In this document: in pieces, positions 3 to 47,678 of the stretch
How the letters are laid out: each line of letters opens with the position of its first letter
Position numbering within the stretch: the first letter of the stretch is position 1
Made by a program: the position numbers and the translations under genes
The notes under the pieces: model-generated
The model's database searches: none
The model's input: the letters and a program-made list of their open reading frames with translations, nothing else
Told to the model about the DNA's origin: nothing
IMG/VR virus record: IMGVR_UViG_3300043411_001170
Span: 62,001-126,000 of that record
Origin: a virus
DNA: 64,000 bases
Reading direction: 5' to 3' (one strand)

Positions 3-1136
3 GGCGAATCGACACACGTGTCATCTCACTTCGTATTTAAAAAATATGAAGGATCTAGCGGTCTTAATGCAAGTTCCTTTAATGGTAATTTCTTTTGCGC
101 TGTAGACATTACGGAAATGGGTCTTGATCCGAGCCTTGCGTTTGGATTTACATTGGAGGCAAAAAGATTCTCTGATGCTGTGTCTCTTTTGAAAGATAAA
201 GACGCTGTAAACTTTTTGTTGGACGACTATATTTCGAGTTCTCCAAAAATTACGGTAAAAACAACTACAGGTAGAATTAAATTCCAGTCGATGAATTGGG
301 AAGATGCTCCAGACTGGAAGGCATTTACATTTAAGTCGTCTATCTCTCTTGATATTGAATTACTTAAAGATTCGTTTGGTTTTTGTTCTAACTTTTGTAA
401 AAATCTACCGCAGAATCCATCAATCAGTATTATTGAGTGTGTTGACGGTACGGTAAAATCAACAGATGGTGTTGTTATTGCCCAGGTTAAATGTGTTGAT
501 TTTGACGGGATTTCGTTAAAGACTCACATTAATAACTATCCTACATTAAAACATGCCTTGTCATTTGCCAAAACTAATTCAAAAGTACAAGTACAAGAGT
601 CGGAGAATGGATCTGTAACTTTTTATAGTTACACGAATGACGACGGCCCTCTACAGAATTTTTGTTTTGGTGAAACAAAAGTCCTTTATTCTATCCCAGA
701 AGAAAAAACAAAATGGGATGATGTGTGTGACGGTTATTTATCAGTTGCAAAGAACGATCTGTTAACGGCCTTAAATTTTATTAATTGCGGGTCGGTTGTA
801 ACAAACACAAGCCCTGTACAATTTGTTTCTGTGAGCACTAATGAGGGTAAGTTGGTATTAGAAATGGCATCTAATATTGATGACGAACCTTGTGTTGGTG
901 AAGTTAATCTAGAAACAGATCCAGTTCTTGAAAACGATGCCGTTCAAGTTATGAATCTTCAAAAGTGCTTATTTTCTTTTAAAGACCTACTCAACGTTAT
1001 TAAGAACATGAAAACTGATAATGTTGTAGCTATGGTGTATGCTAGTGACAAAAATGTTGTTCTGTGCTTTAGATCTTTTACGACGGGACTAAAATATCAA
1101 GTGACTTTAGGTGGATTTATTAAACCTGCCGAATAA
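3..1136 (+). CDS. DNA polymerase sliding clamp (beta-clamp-like), 5' partial
   Basis: The protein has at least 372 residues, close to the usual length of bacterial DnaN. It shows alternating beta strands and helices like a three-domain beta clamp. The C-terminal part has a helix followed by strand pairs (KDLLNVIKNMKTDNVV, then KNVVLCF), as in clamp domain III. The clamp would tether the replicative polymerase to DNA. This fits the DnaX-like clamp loader at 5.7 kb and the primase at 3.3 kb. A GTG at 18 could be a start, but the frame stays open to base 3 and no ribosome site is visible, so the gene probably begins before the window. The assignment rests on length, fold pattern and neighbours, because sequence identity to DnaN is low. 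Confidence 0.55.
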   Translation, partial: GESTHVSSHFVFKKYEGSSGLNASSFNGNFFCAVDITEMGLDPSLAFGFTLEAKRFSDAVSLLKDKDAVNFLLDDYISSSPKITVKTTTGRIKFQSMNWEDAPDWKAFTFKSSISLDIELLKDSFGFCSNFCKNLPQNPSISIIECVDGTVKSTDGVVIAQVKCVDFDGISLKTHINNYPTLKHALSFAKTNSKVQVQESENGSVTFYSYTNDDGPLQNFCFGETKVLYSIPEEKTKWDDVCDGYLSVAKNDLLTALNFINCGSVVTNTSPVQFVSVSTNEGKLVLEMASNIDDEPCVGEVNLETDPVLENDAVQVMNLQKCLFSFKDLLNVIKNMKTDNVVAMVYASDKNVVLCFRSFTTGLKYQVTLGGFIKPAE

Positions 1137-2554: not shown

Positions 2555-3322
2555 ATGATTTCTGCGGATGTTCAAAAAATTCTACAAATTTATGGAAGCA
2601 AAGTAAAAGACTACTTAAAGACTAAAACGTTGTCAGTAGAAGATAAAAAAGAGATAGGGAAAGAACTTTATAAGATATTATTTTTAAATAAAGACGAACC
2701 GAAACAAGAGGCTAAAACAAAGCCTAATTTGATACCGAAAGTAAAGCCGTCCCTGCTAGATTATAAGCTTAATCTAATAAACGAAGTATTTAAAAATATC
2801 CCCATTGGGATATCGGTATATGCAAACGAAGATTTATTACCTTATGTTATTTCGTCTTCTACACCTGCCAGGGGTGTACAATGGGTTCAGAGTCATGACA
2901 AGGGAATGATCTGTTTAGGTGTCTTAAATAGAGAAGAAGTAAAAGAGGAGGATATATTCAATAAAATACTGAATGAAGTTATTGTATCAGAGGAGACATG
3001 TCATAGAGGAAATATATTTTTATATGAAAAAGATATTAGAGATAGTATCGTTGCAGGAATAAATTGCTGTATAGGTTATCTTGAATCATTTGATTTAACG
3101 GCTATACAGATAATACATAATATAGATGACAGTCTTATCTGTAATGTTCCTCATAAGATAACAAGGGCGGAATGGATGACGGAAGGCATGATTGCGGTTA
3201 TTCCAGAAAACTTATCTTATTTAGGAGATATTTTCCTATTAGGAAGGAATCATTTTGCAGTAAGCGTCCATAATATAAATAGAGGCATCTCTATTTGTAT
3301 TCCAGGAAAGAAAGTAGAGTAA
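2555..3322 (+). CDS. Hypothetical protein in replication cluster
   Basis: I do not recognise this 255-residue soluble protein. The first 60 residues are helical and lysine/proline-rich. The remainder looks like an alpha/beta domain. The ATG at 2555 has AGAGAGG seven bases upstream and is preferred to the TTG at 2537. Its end overlaps the primase frame if that gene starts at 3295. The position between the ATPase and primase genes suggests a replication or recombination accessory role, but this is inference only. Confidence 0.55.
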   Translation: MISADVQKILQIYGSKVKDYLKTKTLSVEDKKEIGKELYKILFLNKDEPKQEAKTKPNLIPKVKPSLLDYKLNLINEVFKNIPIGISVYANEDLLPYVISSSTPARGVQWVQSHDKGMICLGVLNREEVKEEDIFNKILNEVIVSEETCHRGNIFLYEKDIRDSIVAGINCCIGYLESFDLTAIQIIHNIDDSLICNVPHKITRAEWMTEGMIAVIPENLSYLGDIFLLGRNHFAVSVHNINRGISICIPGKKVE

Positions 3323-4008
3323 AAAAAGTGGAAGACATAAAGAAGTGCCTTAAAAGAGTAACAGAAGAAGACACTCTTTTATATGATTACTGTCTTGGTC
3401 GGGGATTTAAAGAAGAATGGTTCAGTGAATACTCTTTATTAAAATGGGAAATTCCCAAGAAAATAATAGAGAATGGGGATTTCTGTAATATATTTTCTCC
3501 AAAAGGGGAATTATTAGAAGATTGTATAATATTTCCGTTCTTCAATCATCTAGGAGAATTTGTAGGTTTTGAGTCCCGTAATGTAAAAGTAAAAACTCAG
3601 CGGAAATTTAAATTCAAAGACGATGAATTAATCATATTTGGGATGAGTACCAGTGTGCTAGACAAAATATGGAATGGCTGCAATATATGGGTTGTAGAGG
3701 GTATTTTCGACTTGATTGCCTTACGTTGGATAACTGATGATATTGTGCTATCAACAGGTACGGCAAGTTTTAGCAAAAAATTTATAGATCTATTAAATAG
3801 ATATTTTAATAGAGACTACATAGTTAATATTCTATATGATAATGATAAAGCAGGTAGGGAAGGATCGGAAAGATCTGTTAAAAAACTAGACAAAATTGAT
3901 ATTATTTCAAGGAGATACTTCGTACATGACTTTAAAGATCCTGGAGATCTTTGGGATAGGTACGGAGAGTTTTTAATTGGTTCTATAGGTAAGAGCAAAA
4001 TAAGATGA
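3295..4008 (+). CDS. DnaG-type primase TOPRIM domain protein
   Basis: The protein carries a TOPRIM fold: the catalytic glutamate in IWVVEGIFDLIAL (about residue 135) and the metal-binding D-x-D in LYDNDKAGREG (about residues 182-184). The region before it (PKGELLEDCIIFPFFN, then GFESRN) matches the linker of DnaG-like primases. It would make RNA primers at the fork. At 237 residues it lacks the N-terminal zinc finger and the C-terminal helicase-binding domain of full DnaG. The start is uncertain: TTG at 3295 has AGAGG nine bases upstream, while GTG at 3328 would avoid overlap with the preceding gene. It overlaps the next gene by four bases (ATGA). Confidence 0.82.
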   Translation: MYSRKESRVKKVEDIKKCLKRVTEEDTLLYDYCLGRGFKEEWFSEYSLLKWEIPKKIIENGDFCNIFSPKGELLEDCIIFPFFNHLGEFVGFESRNVKVKTQRKFKFKDDELIIFGMSTSVLDKIWNGCNIWVVEGIFDLIALRWITDDIVLSTGTASFSKKFIDLLNRYFNRDYIVNILYDNDKAGREGSERSVKKLDKIDIISRRYFVHDFKDPGDLWDRYGEFLIGSIGKSKIR

Positions 4009-5726: not shown

Positions 5727-7238
5727 ATGGCTTTCGACACTAAATACAGACCTTTAAATTTTAATGACGTTATTGGACAGGACAGTATAGTAAGTACATT
5801 AAAAGGTTTTGTATTATCTAACACAGGATTTAATCAGTCCTATATCATATCGGGACCATATGGTACAGGTAAAACGACATTAGCGCGTATTTTTGCTAGA
5901 GCCTTGTTATGTGAAAGTCCTATTAATGGTGATTGTTGTAATAATTGCAAAAGTTGCAAAAACTTATTGGCTCTTAAAGACGATAGTATTATAGAGATAG
6001 ATGCAGCCACTAATTCTGGAAAAGACGATGTAAAGAAAATAGTAGAAGATTCAATGTATGCCTCGTTTGGAGGAAGAAGGAAAATATTTATTCTTGATGA
6101 GGCTCATCAGTTATCAAAATTTGCGCTTGATGCCCTATTAAAACCATTGGAAGAAGATATACAAGGGACGGAAAATAAAAAGCTCATTTGTATTTTTTGT
6201 ACTACGGAAAGGCAAAAAATAAAGAAAACTATCATGTCTCGGTGTGCGTTGTTTTCTTTGAATCCTGTGTCATGTGACGACATAGCACAGAGGTTATCCT
6301 TTGTTTGTGGGAAAGAAAACATTAACTACGAATTATCTGCTTTAAAATATATAGCTACTAGGTCTGATAAGCATGTTAGAGATGCATTAAAAACATTAGA
6401 AATAATATCAAGCTCTGGTGAGATAACCACCGAACGAGTGAATTTTTATTATGGTGTAGACAAAATTAGCTTGATTGTAGATCTATTGCTACAGATTAAA
6501 ACATCTGTGGATCTAGCGATGCTGAGTAATTTATTAGTCTATTTCTCACCGTTTGATCTATGTGTTCTTTTGTCAAGTATCTCACATCATTCATATATTT
6601 ATTCAAAAACAAAAACAAATCTATCAAAAGAATGCACTGAGAATATTCTTGAAACTATTAACAAAGCCTTTTCGGATAGTGAACTAAAATTCATAATGGA
6701 CTTTTTTAGTCGTAAGAGTAAGACACTTGACGAGACAATATTTATATGTGACTTGTTGACTCTAAAAGACGTTTTCAATGGGACACACGATATTACACCT
6801 GTTTTTCATCAGGTCGTTCCAAGTAAAAGATCAGAATCGGCTATGGTCACACCTTCTATAGCACCTTCTAAAAACACTACCGTTACAATAGCTTTTGATG
6901 ATGCTGATAAATTTAAGGAGCTTGAAGAACAAAAAAAGAATGAGATGATCGGACGCTTGGGTAATATAAAACATAAGGACGAATCATCTGTAGGTCCGAA
7001 TGGTTTGACTAAGAACGGTGTTTATCTCGTACCCGCAGCAGTTAAAAGTAAATCAACCCCCAATAGTTCTAGTATTCCAGTAAAAAAACCGATTATAAAC
7101 GAATCGGTAGGTACAGCTGATAATATAGTCACTAATGATACTAAAAAAACTATACTGAGTCCAGAAGATGTTGTTTCATTAATTAATGATAGGTTTTCGA
7201 AAATATGTCAACAAAAAAAGCCACCGCAAAAAGAGTAA
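5727..7238 (+). CDS. dnaX: DNA polymerase III gamma/tau-like clamp loader ATPase
   Basis: Features of DnaX are plain: KYRPLNFNDVIGQD at the N-terminus, Walker A GPYGTGKTT (43-51), zinc-module cysteines at residues 62-77 (C...CC..C..C), Walker B DEAH (124-127), and the arginine-finger motif SRC (171-173). It would use ATP to load the sliding clamp encoded at the left edge. At 503 residues it carries a C-terminal tail after about residue 360 that is disordered and K/S/P-rich, like a short tau region but not recognisable. The ribosome site AAGGGAG precedes the ATG. Its 3' end overlaps the next gene by 34 bases. Confidence 0.92.
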   Translation: MAFDTKYRPLNFNDVIGQDSIVSTLKGFVLSNTGFNQSYIISGPYGTGKTTLARIFARALLCESPINGDCCNNCKSCKNLLALKDDSIIEIDAATNSGKDDVKKIVEDSMYASFGGRRKIFILDEAHQLSKFALDALLKPLEEDIQGTENKKLICIFCTTERQKIKKTIMSRCALFSLNPVSCDDIAQRLSFVCGKENINYELSALKYIATRSDKHVRDALKTLEIISSSGEITTERVNFYYGVDKISLIVDLLLQIKTSVDLAMLSNLLVYFSPFDLCVLLSSISHHSYIYSKTKTNLSKECTENILETINKAFSDSELKFIMDFFSRKSKTLDETIFICDLLTLKDVFNGTHDITPVFHQVVPSKRSESAMVTPSIAPSKNTTVTIAFDDADKFKELEEQKKNEMIGRLGNIKHKDESSVGPNGLTKNGVYLVPAAVKSKSTPNSSSIPVKKPIINESVGTADNIVTNDTKKTILSPEDVVSLINDRFSKICQQKKPPQKE

Positions 7239-8362
7239 AGTTATCAAAAGATAAGAAAGGTGAGTTGGAGGATTTTTTAGTCAAAGTCGTCTATAAACTA
7301 TCGTCAGGGAAGGATGTGAGATGTAAAGATGTAATGGATGGGATTAAGGATAACCTTAGAAACGATCCCGACCATTTATTCTTACATATTAAAGAACACG
7401 TTGTAAGAACGACCATATTATCCTCTTCTTACTTTGATGCAACGAGAAGAGGGTTTTGGGGTCTTTCAAATACGGGAAAAACTCTTGCAGAAAGTTTAAT
7501 CTATGAAGAAGAATGTGTAGATATTACAGATAGTATTAAAAATTACGGTGTTAGTTCGGATATGGATCTTATTGAAAACACTATATTAAAAAGTATATAC
7601 GTTTTATCCAAACAAATAGAAGGACAGAAAGTAAGAAGTTCCAAAGTCATAAAAGAGGTACAACGTTATAGAGAGGTACTAGACTTAACAAATAAAGATT
7701 TCTGCTTAAATGATGCTTTTATAAAATATGTGGGGATAACGTCAAAGAAGGTGTGGAAACCTTCTTTTGGCTTTTGGGGCTTATCAGAAAGTACCTATAA
7801 AACAGCAGAAAAGAATTTTCCAGATGTTATAAAAGAAAAATATTGGGTTACAGTAGAATTATCTTCTCTTGGGGAGCAAAAATTAGAGGAAGGTGATTTA
7901 GAGAGAATTCTAAGAATTCAATTAAACTCACCAAAAGCAAACTTTTTTATACCATCTGCTAAGTATATGAAAAAGGATGCGTTGAAGTCCGAAATATTTC
8001 ACCTTATTCAAGGTTATATATTTGTATCGTCAGGATTGCCTTTAAGATCCTATTTAGATTTGGAAGATAGTCCTTATGTCAATAGTGTTTTTTACGAAAC
8101 GACTATGGACGGACAAATACACTTAAAGTTACTTCCTAATTCTAAAATAGAGGATATGAAAACTGACCTGGATAAAATGGTACAAGGAAGTATAAAAGAT
8201 GGAGAAACTGTACATATAAATGCAGGATTATATCAACATATAGAAGGAAAAGTACTTTCTATTTTTGAATCCGATGCTTATGTAGAAATAGTATTCAAAT
8301 CGATGATAATTGTAGTTAAGTTACCAAAAATATTTTTAGATCCTATTATGCCTGTTTATTAA
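7205..8362 (+). CDS. NusG-like protein with two N-terminal winged-helix repeats
   Basis: The C-terminal half resembles NusG/RfaH. An NGN-like region (about 213-325) has FFIPSAKY and the hallmark HLIQGYIFV, followed by a KOW-like segment GETVHINAGLYQHIEGKV (333-350). Such proteins bind RNA polymerase and alter elongation or termination. The N-terminal half contains two similar units, residues about 17-97 and 123-203, each ending in a G-F-W-G-L-S motif (83-88 and 189-194). These resemble the winged-helix domains at the N-terminus of Mrr-type or HARE-HTH proteins. The combination is unusual. The gene overlaps dnaX by 34 bases and precedes a sigma-like gene, suggesting a phage-encoded transcription switch. 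Confidence 0.68.
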   Translation: MSTKKATAKRVKLSKDKKGELEDFLVKVVYKLSSGKDVRCKDVMDGIKDNLRNDPDHLFLHIKEHVVRTTILSSSYFDATRRGFWGLSNTGKTLAESLIYEEECVDITDSIKNYGVSSDMDLIENTILKSIYVLSKQIEGQKVRSSKVIKEVQRYREVLDLTNKDFCLNDAFIKYVGITSKKVWKPSFGFWGLSESTYKTAEKNFPDVIKEKYWVTVELSSLGEQKLEEGDLERILRIQLNSPKANFFIPSAKYMKKDALKSEIFHLIQGYIFVSSGLPLRSYLDLEDSPYVNSVFYETTMDGQIHLKLLPNSKIEDMKTDLDKMVQGSIKDGETVHINAGLYQHIEGKVLSIFESDAYVEIVFKSMIIVVKLPKIFLDPIMPVY

Positions 8363-8374
8363 ATTTGAGGTTAT

Positions 8375-9037
8375 ATGACAAATATATCTAAATTACCATT
8401 AGCACAAATAAGTTCTTTAGAAGAGGTTCAGAATAAGTTTGATTCTGAACCTGGATTACCTGGAATGGCATTTGAAGATTTTGACTTGGAAAAAGAATTT
8501 AGTCTATTGGAACTTGAAATAGAAGGGGAGGAAAGAGAATATCTATTAGATAAAGAAAAAAAATTGGAGAAGTTAAAAGAAATTGTAAATAGACTCCCAA
8601 ATATAGAACACGATTTCATCGACCTTTACTACTTTAAAAGAGTACGACAAGTTAATATTGCAGAAATATTTAAAGTGTCTCAGCCTATGGTGTGTTACAG
8701 ATTAAAGAAAGCTATAGATAGAATAAAATTTCTTCTATCCATGCCTGAACTATCGGAATCTCAAGTAAGAAAAGATTTGCGCGATCATTTCAAGTCTGAA
8801 AAGGATTTAGATATTATAATTCTAATGTATAAGACAACATGTGAATCAAGAACAGCACAAATACTAGGGACCAGCCAGAGTTTTGTACGTCATAGATTTA
8901 TTAGAGCTATTCAGGTATTAGAAGAAGTTAATTCTTATTATCATAATCTCATGAGTAAGATTATGGATAATCTAAATATATTAAAGGATCAAGACGAAGA
9001 AATTATATATATGGTAGATAATAATCAATATTCATAA
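8375..9037 (+). CDS. Sigma-factor-like protein with two region-4-type HTH units
   Basis: The 220-residue protein has an acidic N-terminal third. Then come two helix-turn-helix segments: about residues 70-115 (DLYYFKRVRQVNIAEIFKVS, QPMVCYRLKKAIDRI) and about 140-180 (CESRTAQILGTSQSFVRHRF). Both look like sigma-70 region 4. No region 2 (-10 recognition, core binding) is visible, so it may be a partial sigma or a region-4-like regulator of middle or late promoters. The ribosome site is TTGAGGTTAT. Its neighbour is the NusG-like gene, with a 12-base gap, consistent with joint expression. Confidence 0.65.
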   Translation: MTNISKLPLAQISSLEEVQNKFDSEPGLPGMAFEDFDLEKEFSLLELEIEGEEREYLLDKEKKLEKLKEIVNRLPNIEHDFIDLYYFKRVRQVNIAEIFKVSQPMVCYRLKKAIDRIKFLLSMPELSESQVRKDLRDHFKSEKDLDIIILMYKTTCESRTAQILGTSQSFVRHRFIRAIQVLEEVNSYYHNLMSKIMDNLNILKDQDEEIIYMVDNNQYS

Positions 9038-9053
9038 ATTATGAGTAACTATA

Positions 9054-10508
9054 ATGCTTGATGATATATTAACTTTAGAAGACTTAAAAAATCCACAGGT
9101 GCTACGTTTACTTTTTATGGAAGAGGGAAGGGATTTAGTAGATATCTTTAAGTTATCTTCTTATTTAGAAAACAACATACTAAAGAAAGAAGATAAAAAA
9201 GAACATGGTATTTATTTTACACCGAAGGTTTTAGTAGATCTCATGTTAACGACCATTGATCTTCCTTTAATGGAAGAAGTCTTTAGGGTCATTGACACAT
9301 CCTGTGGAATAGGAAATATCCTTATACCTTTTGCAAGACTCTATGCCAATCATAAGATGATCTATAGTAAGAAGAAAAAGAGAAAAGAGGATTTTCGATT
9401 TTTCTTGAGAAAGGTATATAGTGAATGTATCTTCGGGATTGACTTGAACAATGACTTTATTGACATTATGAAAACAGTAATGTCGGTAGACTGTGGGATT
9501 TCTACAGATAACCTAAATAATTTCATTGTAAACGACTTCTTTAAAGAGAAGAACCCTTTTGGCGGAATTAAATTTAACGTGTTACTAGCAAATCCGCCTT
9601 ATGTAACAGGAATTAAATCTACGGTTGATAGTGAATTAAAAGGCGTTTCCAATTTATCTTTTAACTATCTAATTAAATCAATAGACTTGTTAAAGTCTAA
9701 TTATCAGACAGCATTAGTAATGCCGTCTATATTTCTTAATTCGTTGTCTTTCCTAGAAAAAAGAAAATACTGGATAAAAAATAGAAACTTAAATAAATTA
9801 TGGCTATGCAGTCCAGAATCAAGATTTTTCGGTACGGCTTCTATTAATGTTTGTGTTATCTCACTTAACAGTAGAGTTAATTTAATACCTCAATTTATGA
9901 CTTTTCCTGATAATGGGACATTGGGAGTATTAGAGGGAGATTGTTCAGACTGGTCTACTGCATATTTTAAGAAAATAGATGTTATTAATAAATTGAAAAA
10001 TGAGTATCAAGTAACGGCAGGGATGGTTGTTTCAGAAGCATATCAATGTTTGCCCTATATCACCGATAGTGAGAGTGGTGAGGGGAAGAAAGTTATAACA
10101 TCAGGAATGGTGAAACCTTTTTATTGCTCTTGGGGACAGAAACAAAAGAATATCTTGAAGAAGTCATTTAAGTATCCAAGACTGGAAACAAACATATTAT
10201 TTTCAAAGAGTCTGAATGAAAAAATATTAAGTAAAAGACCTAAACTTGTTATTCCAGGATTAATAATGAAAATTAAAACATTTTTAGACCCTAATGGAGA
10301 ATATTTGCCTGCTGCGGGTACATATGTGATTTATCATAAAACAGATGACATTGATATTTTGAAAAAATTATGTGAATATTTAAATAATGATAAGCGAGTA
10401 CATGATTACTTGATTTCTATACTAGAGACAAAAAGAATAGGACAAGGAGGATACCCTATTACTAAATCCTTTCTGGAAGGAATACCTTTAGAGGGTTATG
10501 ATGACTGA
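9054..10508 (+). CDS. N6-adenine DNA methyltransferase (Class I, NPPY)
   Basis: The 484-residue protein has the SAM-binding motif VIDTSCGIGN (79-88), the acidic end of strand 2 in IFGIDLNN (127-133), and the catalytic NPPY (180-183). The GIYFTP element near residue 52 is typical of the M/Type I-IIG gamma-like N6 methylases. Residues 330-480 would be the target-recognition domain. No endonuclease motif or restriction partner is present, so this is an orphan methylase that could protect phage DNA from host restriction or mark it. The last bases overlap the following gene (ATGACTGA). Confidence 0.85.
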   Translation: MLDDILTLEDLKNPQVLRLLFMEEGRDLVDIFKLSSYLENNILKKEDKKEHGIYFTPKVLVDLMLTTIDLPLMEEVFRVIDTSCGIGNILIPFARLYANHKMIYSKKKKRKEDFRFFLRKVYSECIFGIDLNNDFIDIMKTVMSVDCGISTDNLNNFIVNDFFKEKNPFGGIKFNVLLANPPYVTGIKSTVDSELKGVSNLSFNYLIKSIDLLKSNYQTALVMPSIFLNSLSFLEKRKYWIKNRNLNKLWLCSPESRFFGTASINVCVISLNSRVNLIPQFMTFPDNGTLGVLEGDCSDWSTAYFKKIDVINKLKNEYQVTAGMVVSEAYQCLPYITDSESGEGKKVITSGMVKPFYCSWGQKQKNILKKSFKYPRLETNILFSKSLNEKILSKRPKLVIPGLIMKIKTFLDPNGEYLPAAGTYVIYHKTDDIDILKKLCEYLNNDKRVHDYLISILETKRIGQGGYPITKSFLEGIPLEGYDD

Positions 10509-45731: not shown

Positions 45732-46406
45732 ATGCCTACTTTAACACAGACCGCACACGTTCACATGAAAAGAACCGATATCCCAAATAAGGTTCTTCAA
45801 TTAACTGACTTGTTTCCTCACACCTCTCTAAGCAACACTGTAAACCTTCCTCCTGGCCAAACTCGTTATCTCAAGAGAGCATCGACAGTTTGGAGTACCG
45901 TAGCCACAAGTGGTGCCAATCCTATCGTTACTGTAAATGCTTATCAAGGATTGGCTGCCTATCTTCTTGATAATATCGAAGCTGGTGGTGGCACTTTGGC
46001 ATTTACGGCTGCTCAAGCAAATGCAGCAGCAACAGCATTGTTAGCGATTGCTGATGCAGGAACTGCTCTTACCCTTACAACAATCAATGCTGCTTTGGCA
46101 GTTGTAGTTGCAGCAACCACACTAACAACAAACGGATCTACAGGTACAGTTTTGGAAGTCCTACAGATTATTGGTGGACGTATCTACACTGTTCCTGCCG
46201 CTGCTGTTATTGAAGCTGCTGGTGCAAAGTCTACCAGAAAAGGATCTTTTGACGACACCTATTTCAAGCCTCTCGTTCGTGGTGGCGTTTTTGAAGATTC
46301 TTTGTTATCTGGACAAGTATCTAAATTGAAGTTAGCTACTTTTAGATACAAGAATACAAATGGTGCTGCTATCGTTGTTTATGACGACGAAGGTAATGTC
46401 ATTTAA
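45732..46406 (+). CDS. Virion structural protein, short paralogue
   Basis: The 224-residue protein begins MPTLTQTAHVHMKRTDIP. The segment VNLPPGQTRYLKRA and the ending KLATFRYKNTNGAA are nearly the same in the gene at 46,653, so the two are paralogues in tandem. The middle is A/T-rich (AANAAATALLAIADAG) and helical. Codon use is mildly enriched for CGT and GCT. High expression and a virion location are likely, possibly tail tube or decoration, but I cannot decide which. Confidence 0.6.
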   Translation: MPTLTQTAHVHMKRTDIPNKVLQLTDLFPHTSLSNTVNLPPGQTRYLKRASTVWSTVATSGANPIVTVNAYQGLAAYLLDNIEAGGGTLAFTAAQANAAATALLAIADAGTALTLTTINAALAVVVAATTLTTNGSTGTVLEVLQIIGGRIYTVPAAAVIEAAGAKSTRKGSFDDTYFKPLVRGGVFEDSLLSGQVSKLKLATFRYKNTNGAAIVVYDDEGNVI

Positions 46407-46652
46407 TGTCGAAATAACCTGCGTTGTTGGCCCGTGATTGGCCTAATTTAATAGGTTCTTTAAAAATTAAACAGTGATGTTCTCTCTCACATTGCCGTTT
46501 AATAATTACTAAAAATAATAAGAAAAGCCCCCTGATCGGGGCTTTTCTTATTTAAGGTCATTAATTTTTTAATATTATTTGAATTTTAGTTATAGTCTTT
46601 TGTCTATTTGTGTCTTGTCTTTTAACATCTAACTTGAAGATATAGAGAAAAT
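46407..46652 (+). other. Gene-free gap with a terminator between the paralogues
   Basis: This 246-base gap has a possible stem made from ATTAAAC and GTTTAAT near 46470-46500, and the terminator at 46517-46556. Downstream is AT-rich sequence with no convincing promoter. Confidence 0.4.
46517..46556 (+). terminator. Perfect 15-bp hairpin terminator
   Basis: AATAAGAAAAGCCCC (46517-46531) pairs with GGGGCTTTTCTTATT (46538-46552) across a 6-base loop. The long A/T part of the stem makes it a potentially bidirectional terminator. Confidence 0.88.
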
Positions 46653-47678
46653 ATGCCTACTTTAACACAGACAGCCCACCTTCACGTCAAAAGAACAGAT
46701 ATTCCTGCTAAAGTTCTTCAATTAAATGATCTTTTCCCACACACTTCATTAAGTAACACTGTAAATCTCCCTCCCGGTCAAACACGTTACCTTAAAAGAG
46801 CGTCATCGGTTTGGAATACTGTAGCTACTACAGGTACAAACCCTATTATTACAGCCGCAGAGTATCAAGGTCTTGCAGCGTACCTAATTGATAATTTAGT
46901 TTCTGGTGGCGGTACTTCTCCAGTACAAGCAACAGCTACAATTACTGTTACTGCTGTCCCTGTTGTTGGAACAATCACCATTGGAGGTGTTGTTTTAACA
47001 GCAGCCGCAGGAGCCAGAACTCCTGGAAATGATGACTTTGATGGTACTTTAGGAACTACAGATCTAGTGGCTGCTGAAATTGTAGCAGCTATTAATGATG
47101 TTGCAAACGGATTTGACGCTATTGTTACTGCCGCCGCAGTCGGAAGCATCGTTACTATTACAGCCGTTCCTATCGGTGTTCTCGGTAATGCTATTACTTT
47201 AACTGAAACTTCTGGTCAAATCACAATTTCTGGTGCTTTATTGACAGGTGGCGTTAGCACAGGTACTGGAGCATTGACAGCAGCAAATGCAAATGCAGCA
47301 TCAGCAGCATTATTAGCGATTGCTGATGCAGGAACTGCCCTTACTTTATCTGCTGTAAATGCTGCTATTGCAGGTGTTGTAGCAGGTACTTCTTTAACAG
47401 GTGGCGGATCTACTGGATCTCTACTAACCCTTCTTCAAGTCATTGGCGGTAGAATCTATACTGTTCCTTCACAGTCTATTATTGAGGCTGCCAGCGCAAA
47501 ATCAACTGCTAAAGGAAGTTTGGATACTAGTTATTATAAACACACTGTTCGTGGCGGTGTTTTTGAAGCATCTTTACTTTACGGACAAGTATCCAAGTTA
47601 AAGTTATCTACTTTTAGATATAAGAATACAAATGGTGCAGCCCTTGTAGTATATGATGATGATGGCAATGTTATCTAA
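46653..47678 (+). CDS. Virion structural protein, long paralogue with inserted module
   Basis: The 341-residue protein is exactly 117 residues longer than its neighbour at 45,732. Alignment by eye places the extra sequence at about residues 89-206: ATATITVTAVPVVGTITIGG, then ITAVPIGVLGNAITLT and GALLTGG. The same module type lies in the sheath-like protein at the right edge (ATATITVTAPVLAG, LTAVPVGELGNVLTLT). The flanks (ALLAIADAGTALTL, KLSTFRYKNTNGAA) match the short paralogue. It is a duplicated virion protein that gained an extra, probably Ig-like or beta-sandwich domain. Confidence 0.65.
   Translation: MPTLTQTAHLHVKRTDIPAKVLQLNDLFPHTSLSNTVNLPPGQTRYLKRASSVWNTVATTGTNPIITAAEYQGLAAYLIDNLVSGGGTSPVQATATITVTAVPVVGTITIGGVVLTAAAGARTPGNDDFDGTLGTTDLVAAEIVAAINDVANGFDAIVTAAAVGSIVTITAVPIGVLGNAITLTETSGQITISGALLTGGVSTGTGALTAANANAASAALLAIADAGTALTLSAVNAAIAGVVAGTSLTGGGSTGSLLTLLQVIGGRIYTVPSQSIIEAASAKSTAKGSLDTSYYKHTVRGGVFEASLLYGQVSKLKLSTFRYKNTNGAALVVYDDDGNVI

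What the first reader, a model, noticed from the sequence alone, without database searches (positions are those of the whole stretch)
7205..8362. NusG-like elongation factor fused to two winged-helix repeats
Two homologous units of about 80 residues, each ending in a G-F-W-G-L-S motif, precede an NGN/KOW-like half. NusG proteins act on RNA polymerase, and the G-F-W-G-L ending recalls the winged helix of Mrr_N/HARE proteins. I do not know of this fusion as a described phage factor. It sits beside a sigma-like gene and overlaps dnaX, suggesting a phage transcription switch that is tied to DNA recognition or to replication.
Basis: partly seen in the sequence, partly recalled or inferred. Interest (0 to 1): 0.75.

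Follow-up and report, generated by a model that had tools for sequence, protein, structure and literature searches.

The report
Phage NusG fused to winged helices
A large, uncultured bacterial virus carries its own copy of the universal transcription-elongation factor NusG joined to two likely DNA-binding domains, and its relatives put the same domain on sigma-like transcription factors, which suggests that these viruses steer the host RNA polymerase with a shared DNA-address tag.

Summary
The ORF at 7205-8362 is real. Its C-terminal half is an NGN-KOW NusG protein: AF2 pLDDT mostly 90 or more, Foldseek top hits NusG/RfaH, and 16 of 25 relatives match Pfam NusG. It is a core gene of a clade of large phages: every informative locus has dnaX, then NusG, then a sigma-region-4-like gene. 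None of 24 records tested encodes RNAP beta.

The N-terminal half is a repeat of about 85 residues. No database search finds it directly and AF2 could not fold it. Profile comparison ties both units to a winged-helix family in related phages (95%, E 2e-8), and that family to Pfam Mrr_N (97%), not HARE-HTH. The family sits on the N-terminus of most sampled sigma-like factors of the clade. It is fused to NusG in two further phages, once at the N-terminus and once at the C-terminus. Another sub-clade fuses NusG to a 5'-3' exonuclease. I found no paper describing any of these.

Best reading: an RNAP-bound elongation factor with a double-stranded-DNA-reading tag, probably antiterminating on phage DNA. 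DNA binding, its target and RNAP binding are inferred. A new variant of a known kind.

The parts
7205..8362 (+). 385-aa ORF: two winged-helix-like units followed by NGN-KOW (NusG)
7247..7492 (+). Unit 1 (residues 15-96): Mrr_N-type winged helix, ends RRGFWGLSNTG
   Evidence: hhalign to Mrr_N score 24.6, above all 135 control segments (max 17.2); to the phage WH family 82%
7547..7816 (+). Unit 2 (residues 115-204): more diverged copy, ends FGFWGLSES
   Evidence: alone 30% to the WH family; mean pairwise score 7 SD above shuffles; repeat of unit 1
7838..8182 (+). NGN domain (about residues 212-326), with conserved W-x-x-x-E-L, F-x-P and G-Y-x-F
   Evidence: AF2 pLDDT 92-97 over most of it; alignment of 25 relatives; Foldseek to NusG/RfaH
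8183..8350 (+). KOW domain (about residues 327-382)
5727..7238 (+). dnaX-like clamp-loader gene; its 3' end overlaps the start of the NusG gene by 34 bases
   Evidence: neighbour in all informative relatives
8375..9037 (+). Sigma region-4-like protein, conserved immediate neighbour
   Evidence: Pfam PF04545 E 7e-8; present in all relatives
9054..10508 (+). N6-adenine DNA methyltransferase-like gene, present at this place only in the window phage
   Evidence: PF02384 E 1.2e-10; absent from the other 48 loci; PF02384 in 2 of 30 records
3..1133 (+). Sliding-clamp-like (dnaN-like) reading frame, first gene of the conserved replication block; named from a relative's likely clamp gene (L004), not checked against Pfam
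3295..4008 (+). TOPRIM primase-like gene of the same block

Best explanation
This is a phage-encoded NusG/Spt5-family elongation factor with a tandem Mrr_N-type winged-helix module added at its N-terminus. The NGN domain is expected to sit on the beta-prime clamp helices of the host RNA polymerase (the relatives tested encode no RNAP of their own), displacing host NusG and suppressing pausing and termination on phage operons. The winged helices are expected to bind double-stranded DNA, by sequence or by a phage-specific modification, and so concentrate or retain the factor on phage templates. In related phages the same winged helix sits on the sigma-like factor, whose region 2 would use the same clamp-helix site during initiation. 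So the likeliest scheme is a shared DNA-address tag carried first by the sigma-like factor and, in three phages found here, also by the elongation factor. Shown: domain identity of the C-terminal half, sequence kinship of the N-terminal units to the winged-helix family, recurrence of the fusion, conserved operon. Inferred: DNA binding, target, RNAP binding, antitermination.
For: NGN-KOW. Winged helix: unit pair against 19 phage winged helices 95.4%, E 1.9e-8 over 78 columns; the family against Mrr_N 97.7%, E 2.3e-12; one family member hits Pfam Mrr_N at 2.8e-7, above cut-off. Recurrent fusion to NusG: L178 at the N-terminus, L226 at the C-terminus, at separate places in the NusG tree. Same domain on sigma-like factors: clear in five proteins used to build the family and in 7 of 10 further ones sampled. 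The winged helix on L226's NusG is most similar to one on the sigma-like protein of the same phage. No RNAP beta subunit in 24 records. Conserved dnaX-NusG-sigma4 block. T4 work: sigma region 2 contacts the beta-prime clamp helices, and NusG could bind there after sigma-like gp55 leaves (PMC7892883).
Against: No structure model supports the winged-helix fold: AF2 on the unit pair gave pLDDT 57 and Foldseek found nothing. Unit 2 alone is weak. The window protein itself has no Pfam NusG hit and is recognised only through relatives. At least 66 of 77 distinct relatives do without the winged helices, so they are not needed for the core function. The sigma-like identification is itself weak. The window phage's own sigma-like protein shows no detectable winged helix.
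Confidence: 0.6

Rival explanations
1. The N-terminal pair is a winged-helix module that binds protein (RNA polymerase, the clamp loader or another phage factor) rather than DNA, as many winged helices do; the fusion stabilises a phage transcription-replication complex.
For: The gene always follows dnaX, the sigma-region-4-like partner follows it, and a sub-clade fuses the same NusG to a replication-type 5'-3' exonuclease, all pointing to contacts with replication proteins.
Against: The nearest curated family, Mrr_N, comes from restriction proteins where a DNA-recognition role is assumed; the same module on sigma-like factors fits DNA contact equally well.
Confidence: 0.2
2. The winged helices read adenine methylation laid down by the phage's own N6-methyltransferase next door, so that NusG acts only on marked phage DNA.
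For: An N6-methyltransferase-like gene lies two genes downstream and only in the window phage among 49 loci; other prokaryotic winged helices sense N6-methyladenine (PMC11037411).
Against: Neither of the other two phages with a winged-helix NusG has a PF02384 methylase in its record (the records are fragments, and other methylase families were not searched). PMC11037411 concerns DpnI-like winged helices; kinship with these units was not tested.
Confidence: 0.1
3. The N-terminal half is a lineage-specific, helical extension without winged-helix fold; the GFWGLS motif is a chance or convergent match.
For: No direct database hit, low AF2 confidence, and the direct repeat signal drops when the motif is masked.
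Against: hhalign and pairwise scores well above shuffles and 135 control segments, rising as more winged-helix relatives are added (36, 39, 46); two relatives carry clear members of the family on the same protein.
Confidence: 0.1

Closest known systems
Bacterial NusG and its paralogues (RfaH, LoaP, ActX)
   Same: NGN-KOW domain order and fold; 128-column colinear profile match to E. coli NusG
   Different: N-terminal tandem winged helices; phage-encoded in a replication operon; very diverged sequence. RfaH is recruited through the ops element; here a double-stranded-DNA tag is proposed instead
PHROG 6386 'transcription antiterminator' (phage NusG-like proteins)
   Same: All 5 members scanned hit it, best E 4e-7
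   Different: That family is NGN-KOW sized only (179 positions); the full window protein hits it only at E 0.1
Mrr_N (PF14338), N-terminal winged helix of Mrr-type restriction proteins
   Same: Profile match of the phage winged-helix family (97%); shared [R/G]-G-x-W-x-L-T-x-x-G ending
   Different: No nuclease here; the partner is NusG or a sigma-like factor
T4 late-transcription system (gp55, gp33, sliding clamp gp45 and its loader)
   Same: A phage that uses host RNAP keeps sigma-fragment-like factors; here they lie beside clamp and clamp-loader genes
   Different: T4 relies on host NusG in this scheme (PMC7892883); coupling to the clamp is only suggested by gene order here
RNAP delta subunit / HARE-HTH (PF05066)
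   Same: Also a winged-helix-related domain; delta is an RNAP subunit; ends in W-G-L
   Different: Profile match is poor (1-20%) against 94-98% for Mrr_N

Membership tests
NusG/Spt5 (NGN-KOW) | NGN fold followed by a KOW beta-barrel | tested here: met
   AF2 C-terminal half mostly pLDDT 90 or more; Foldseek best hits NusG and RfaH, E 1e-8 to 1e-7
NusG/Spt5 (NGN-KOW) | Sequence match to Pfam NusG (PF02357) and KOW | tested here: met
   16 of 25 family members match each at E<=0.1, best 4e-5 and 5e-6; the window protein itself does not but matches the family at 100%, E 5e-46. L226 passes the Pfam cut-off
NusG/Spt5 (NGN-KOW) | Binding to the RNAP beta-prime clamp helices | not testable with these tools
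   The strand with the invariant G-Y-x-F is kept; binding needs an experiment
Mrr_N winged helix (PF14338) | Profile similarity over the whole domain | tested here: met
   Unit 1 alone 39%, family that includes it 93.5%, family without it 97.7%; no direct Pfam hit for the window units
Mrr_N winged helix (PF14338) | Three helices plus a two-stranded wing | tested here: inconclusive
   AF2 of the unit pair gives H-H-H-E-E-H, but pLDDT 57 and no Foldseek match
HARE-HTH (PF05066) | Profile similarity over the domain | tested here: not met
   Probability 1-20% in all comparisons, a control segment scores as high
Sigma-70 factor (neighbour 8375-9037) | Region 4 helix-turn-helix | tested here: met
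   PF04545 E 7e-8
Sigma-70 factor (neighbour 8375-9037) | Region 2 (core-binding, -10 recognition) | tested here: not met
   No Pfam region-2 hit at E<=1, so it is sigma4-like, not a full sigma factor

The most novel reading that the evidence does not exclude
A clade of large phages uses one winged-helix family as a common DNA-address domain, placed on both its sigma-like initiation factor and its NusG-like elongation factor, so that host RNA polymerase is marked as phage-dedicated from promoter to terminator, possibly by reading a phage-specific DNA mark and coupled to the replication clamp.
Probability: 0.3. Interest if true: 0.82.

Novelty: new variant of a known kind. Interest (0 to 1): 0.64.

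Why it matters
NusG/Spt5 is the only RNAP-associated transcription factor conserved in all domains of life (PMC3382729, abstract), and its known specialisations work through accessory contacts. It would also give a concrete handle on how large phages without their own RNA polymerase control host polymerase, and on the old question of how transcription is tied to replication outside T4.

Tried and rejected
Direct searches with the N-terminal half found nothing usable: Pfam, PHROGs, PDB, phage records, IMG/VR and GTDB genomes.

My own first guess, HARE-HTH of the RNAP delta subunit, looked good by eye (delta sequence recalled and then confirmed identical to 6zfb_D) but lost clearly to Mrr_N in profile comparison.

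AF2 of the full protein and of the unit pair did not resolve the N-terminal fold; both AF2 jobs are used. Foldseek with the unit model gave only noise.

Fic_N and MxiM Pfam hits (E 0.04-0.2) were dismissed as below threshold. L038 (E 0.02) was a chance hit: the matched frame lies antisense to longer frames.

A linked N6-methylase as general partner of the winged-helix NusG: not supported by co-occurrence, though the records are fragments.

A tree of the short winged-helix domains was too poorly supported to decide the origin of the window units.

Full report
What is in the window. The reading frame 7205-8362 codes for 385 residues, starts inside the 3' end of dnaX (34-base overlap) and is followed after 12 bases by a sigma-region-4-like gene. 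The window lies at 62001-126000 of a 137,687-base virus record. No tRNA genes were found in the window.

C-terminal half. One phage record, LR745208.1 (485 kb), matched residues 197-375 at 34% identity. Iterated scans then gave dozens of IMG/VR contigs of up to 618 kb and one 3-kb contig in an Actinomycetota MAG. The 25-member alignment keeps W-x-x-x-E-L, F-x-P, G-Y-x-F and G-x-Y-x-x-x-x-G, the NGN and KOW landmarks. Sixteen of 25 members match Pfam NusG and sixteen KOW at E<=0.1; the PDB profile search returns Spt5 and NusG; a larger family profile aligns with E. coli NusG over 128 columns at 94% (the E. coli sequence was checked against 2jvv). AF2 folds residues 212-380 mostly with pLDDT 90 or more, and Foldseek returns NusG and RfaH first.

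Operon. In all 48 loci besides the window that were checked, the NusG frame precedes the sigma4-like gene, and in all but the short L097 it follows dnaX, usually within a block clamp - primase - metallopeptidase - dnaX - NusG - sigma4. All 80 loci found with the sigma4-like protein also contain the NusG frame. None of 24 records tested encodes an RNAP beta subunit; several records are fragments, so absence is not proof, but the large ones (372-618 kb) also lack it.

N-terminal half. Most relatives lack it. The two units of the window align with each other. No database finds them directly. Scanning with the sigma4-like neighbour instead of NusG turned up two relatives with an extra domain on NusG: L178 (361 aa, domain at the N-terminus) and L226 (320 aa, domain at the C-terminus). 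Their extra domains are homologous to each other and end in R-G-[L/M]-W-G-L-T-E-[D/E]-G-V. A sigma-like protein in a third phage carries the same domain.

A profile of these three domains matches Mrr_N at 95% and the window unit pair at 86%. With 11 domains the values are 97.7% and 91.5%; with 19 domains the window pair reaches 95.4%, E 1.9e-8. No window sequence was in any of these profiles. Controls: 135 segments of other window proteins score at most 16.5 against the 11-domain family, while unit 1 scores 28.9, unit 2 24.0 and the pair 38.9. These E-values are for single comparisons chosen after inspection, so they overstate the certainty somewhat; the controls and the shuffles are the better guide. 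HARE-HTH is not supported.

Where else the domain occurs. In the phage records it sits at the N-terminus of sigma-like proteins, in one or two copies: five proteins used for the family, and seven of ten further sigma-like proteins by HMM at E<=0.001, one more weakly; LR745208.1 and the window phage's own sigma-like protein show none. It also occurs on three cysteine-rich proteins. The sigma assignment rests on weak hits: region 4 in up to 6 of 15 members, region 2 in one, SigA in the PDB at E 0.001 for one profile and 0.03 for the larger one. It should be read as sigma-like.

Evolution. In a tree of 77 distinct NusG domains the window, L178 and L226 lie apart. Node supports are low, but the opposite attachment in L226 points to at least two separate events. 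The winged helix on L226's NusG scores highest with one on the sigma-like protein of the same phage, which fits domain copying within a genome. Separately, eight distinct NusG proteins are fused to a complete 5'-3' exonuclease (PF02739 E down to 3e-34) and fall together in the tree.

Mechanism. Sigma region 2 contacts the beta-prime clamp helices, and NusG could bind the same helices after the sigma-like gp55 leaves (PMC7892883). If the phage sigma-like factor and NusG each bring the same DNA-binding tag to that site, first in initiation and then in elongation, host polymerase could be kept on phage templates and protected from termination. This is inference; no binding was or could be tested here.

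Literature. Reviews of NusG and of jumbo phages held here do not mention a phage NusG of this kind, and searches for the fusion found nothing. Most subscription papers and preprints are not in this library.

Verdict. Function remains to be shown.

Noticed in passing
L090 4004-5848, L091, L094, L095, L096, L225, L227, L228, L232: The same phage NusG is fused at its C-terminus, through about 150 residues, to a complete 5'-3' exonuclease (PF02739 + PF01367); these fall together in the NusG tree. An elongation factor joined to a replication-type nuclease is striking in itself.
   Followed up: partly
L243, L244, L240, L241, L151, L257-L261, L263, L264: Sigma-like proteins of these phages carry one or two N-terminal Mrr_N-type winged helices.
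   Followed up: partly
L246 1411-2364, L245 1297-2364, L242 976-1851: The same winged helix precedes a cysteine-rich (probably metal-binding) C-terminal part in three phage proteins of unknown function.
   Followed up: no
L002 4212-6098; L005 3079-6056; L026 2996-6011: The dnaX gene seems to be interrupted by an intein-like insert in some relatives: an extra stretch within the L002 frame, split dnaX frames in L005 and L026.
   Followed up: no
window 9054-10508: N6-adenine methyltransferase-like gene inserted behind the sigma4-like gene, at this position only in the window phage.
   Followed up: partly
window 8375-9037: The sigma4-like neighbour seems to hold a second, conserved helix-turn-helix-like half (T-T-C-x-S ... 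Q-x-x-V-R-H-R-F) besides region 4.
   Followed up: no
G000 46355-47284 (-), L256: The window phage's own sigma-like protein, outside the window, is highly diverged and lacks a detectable winged helix.
   Followed up: partly
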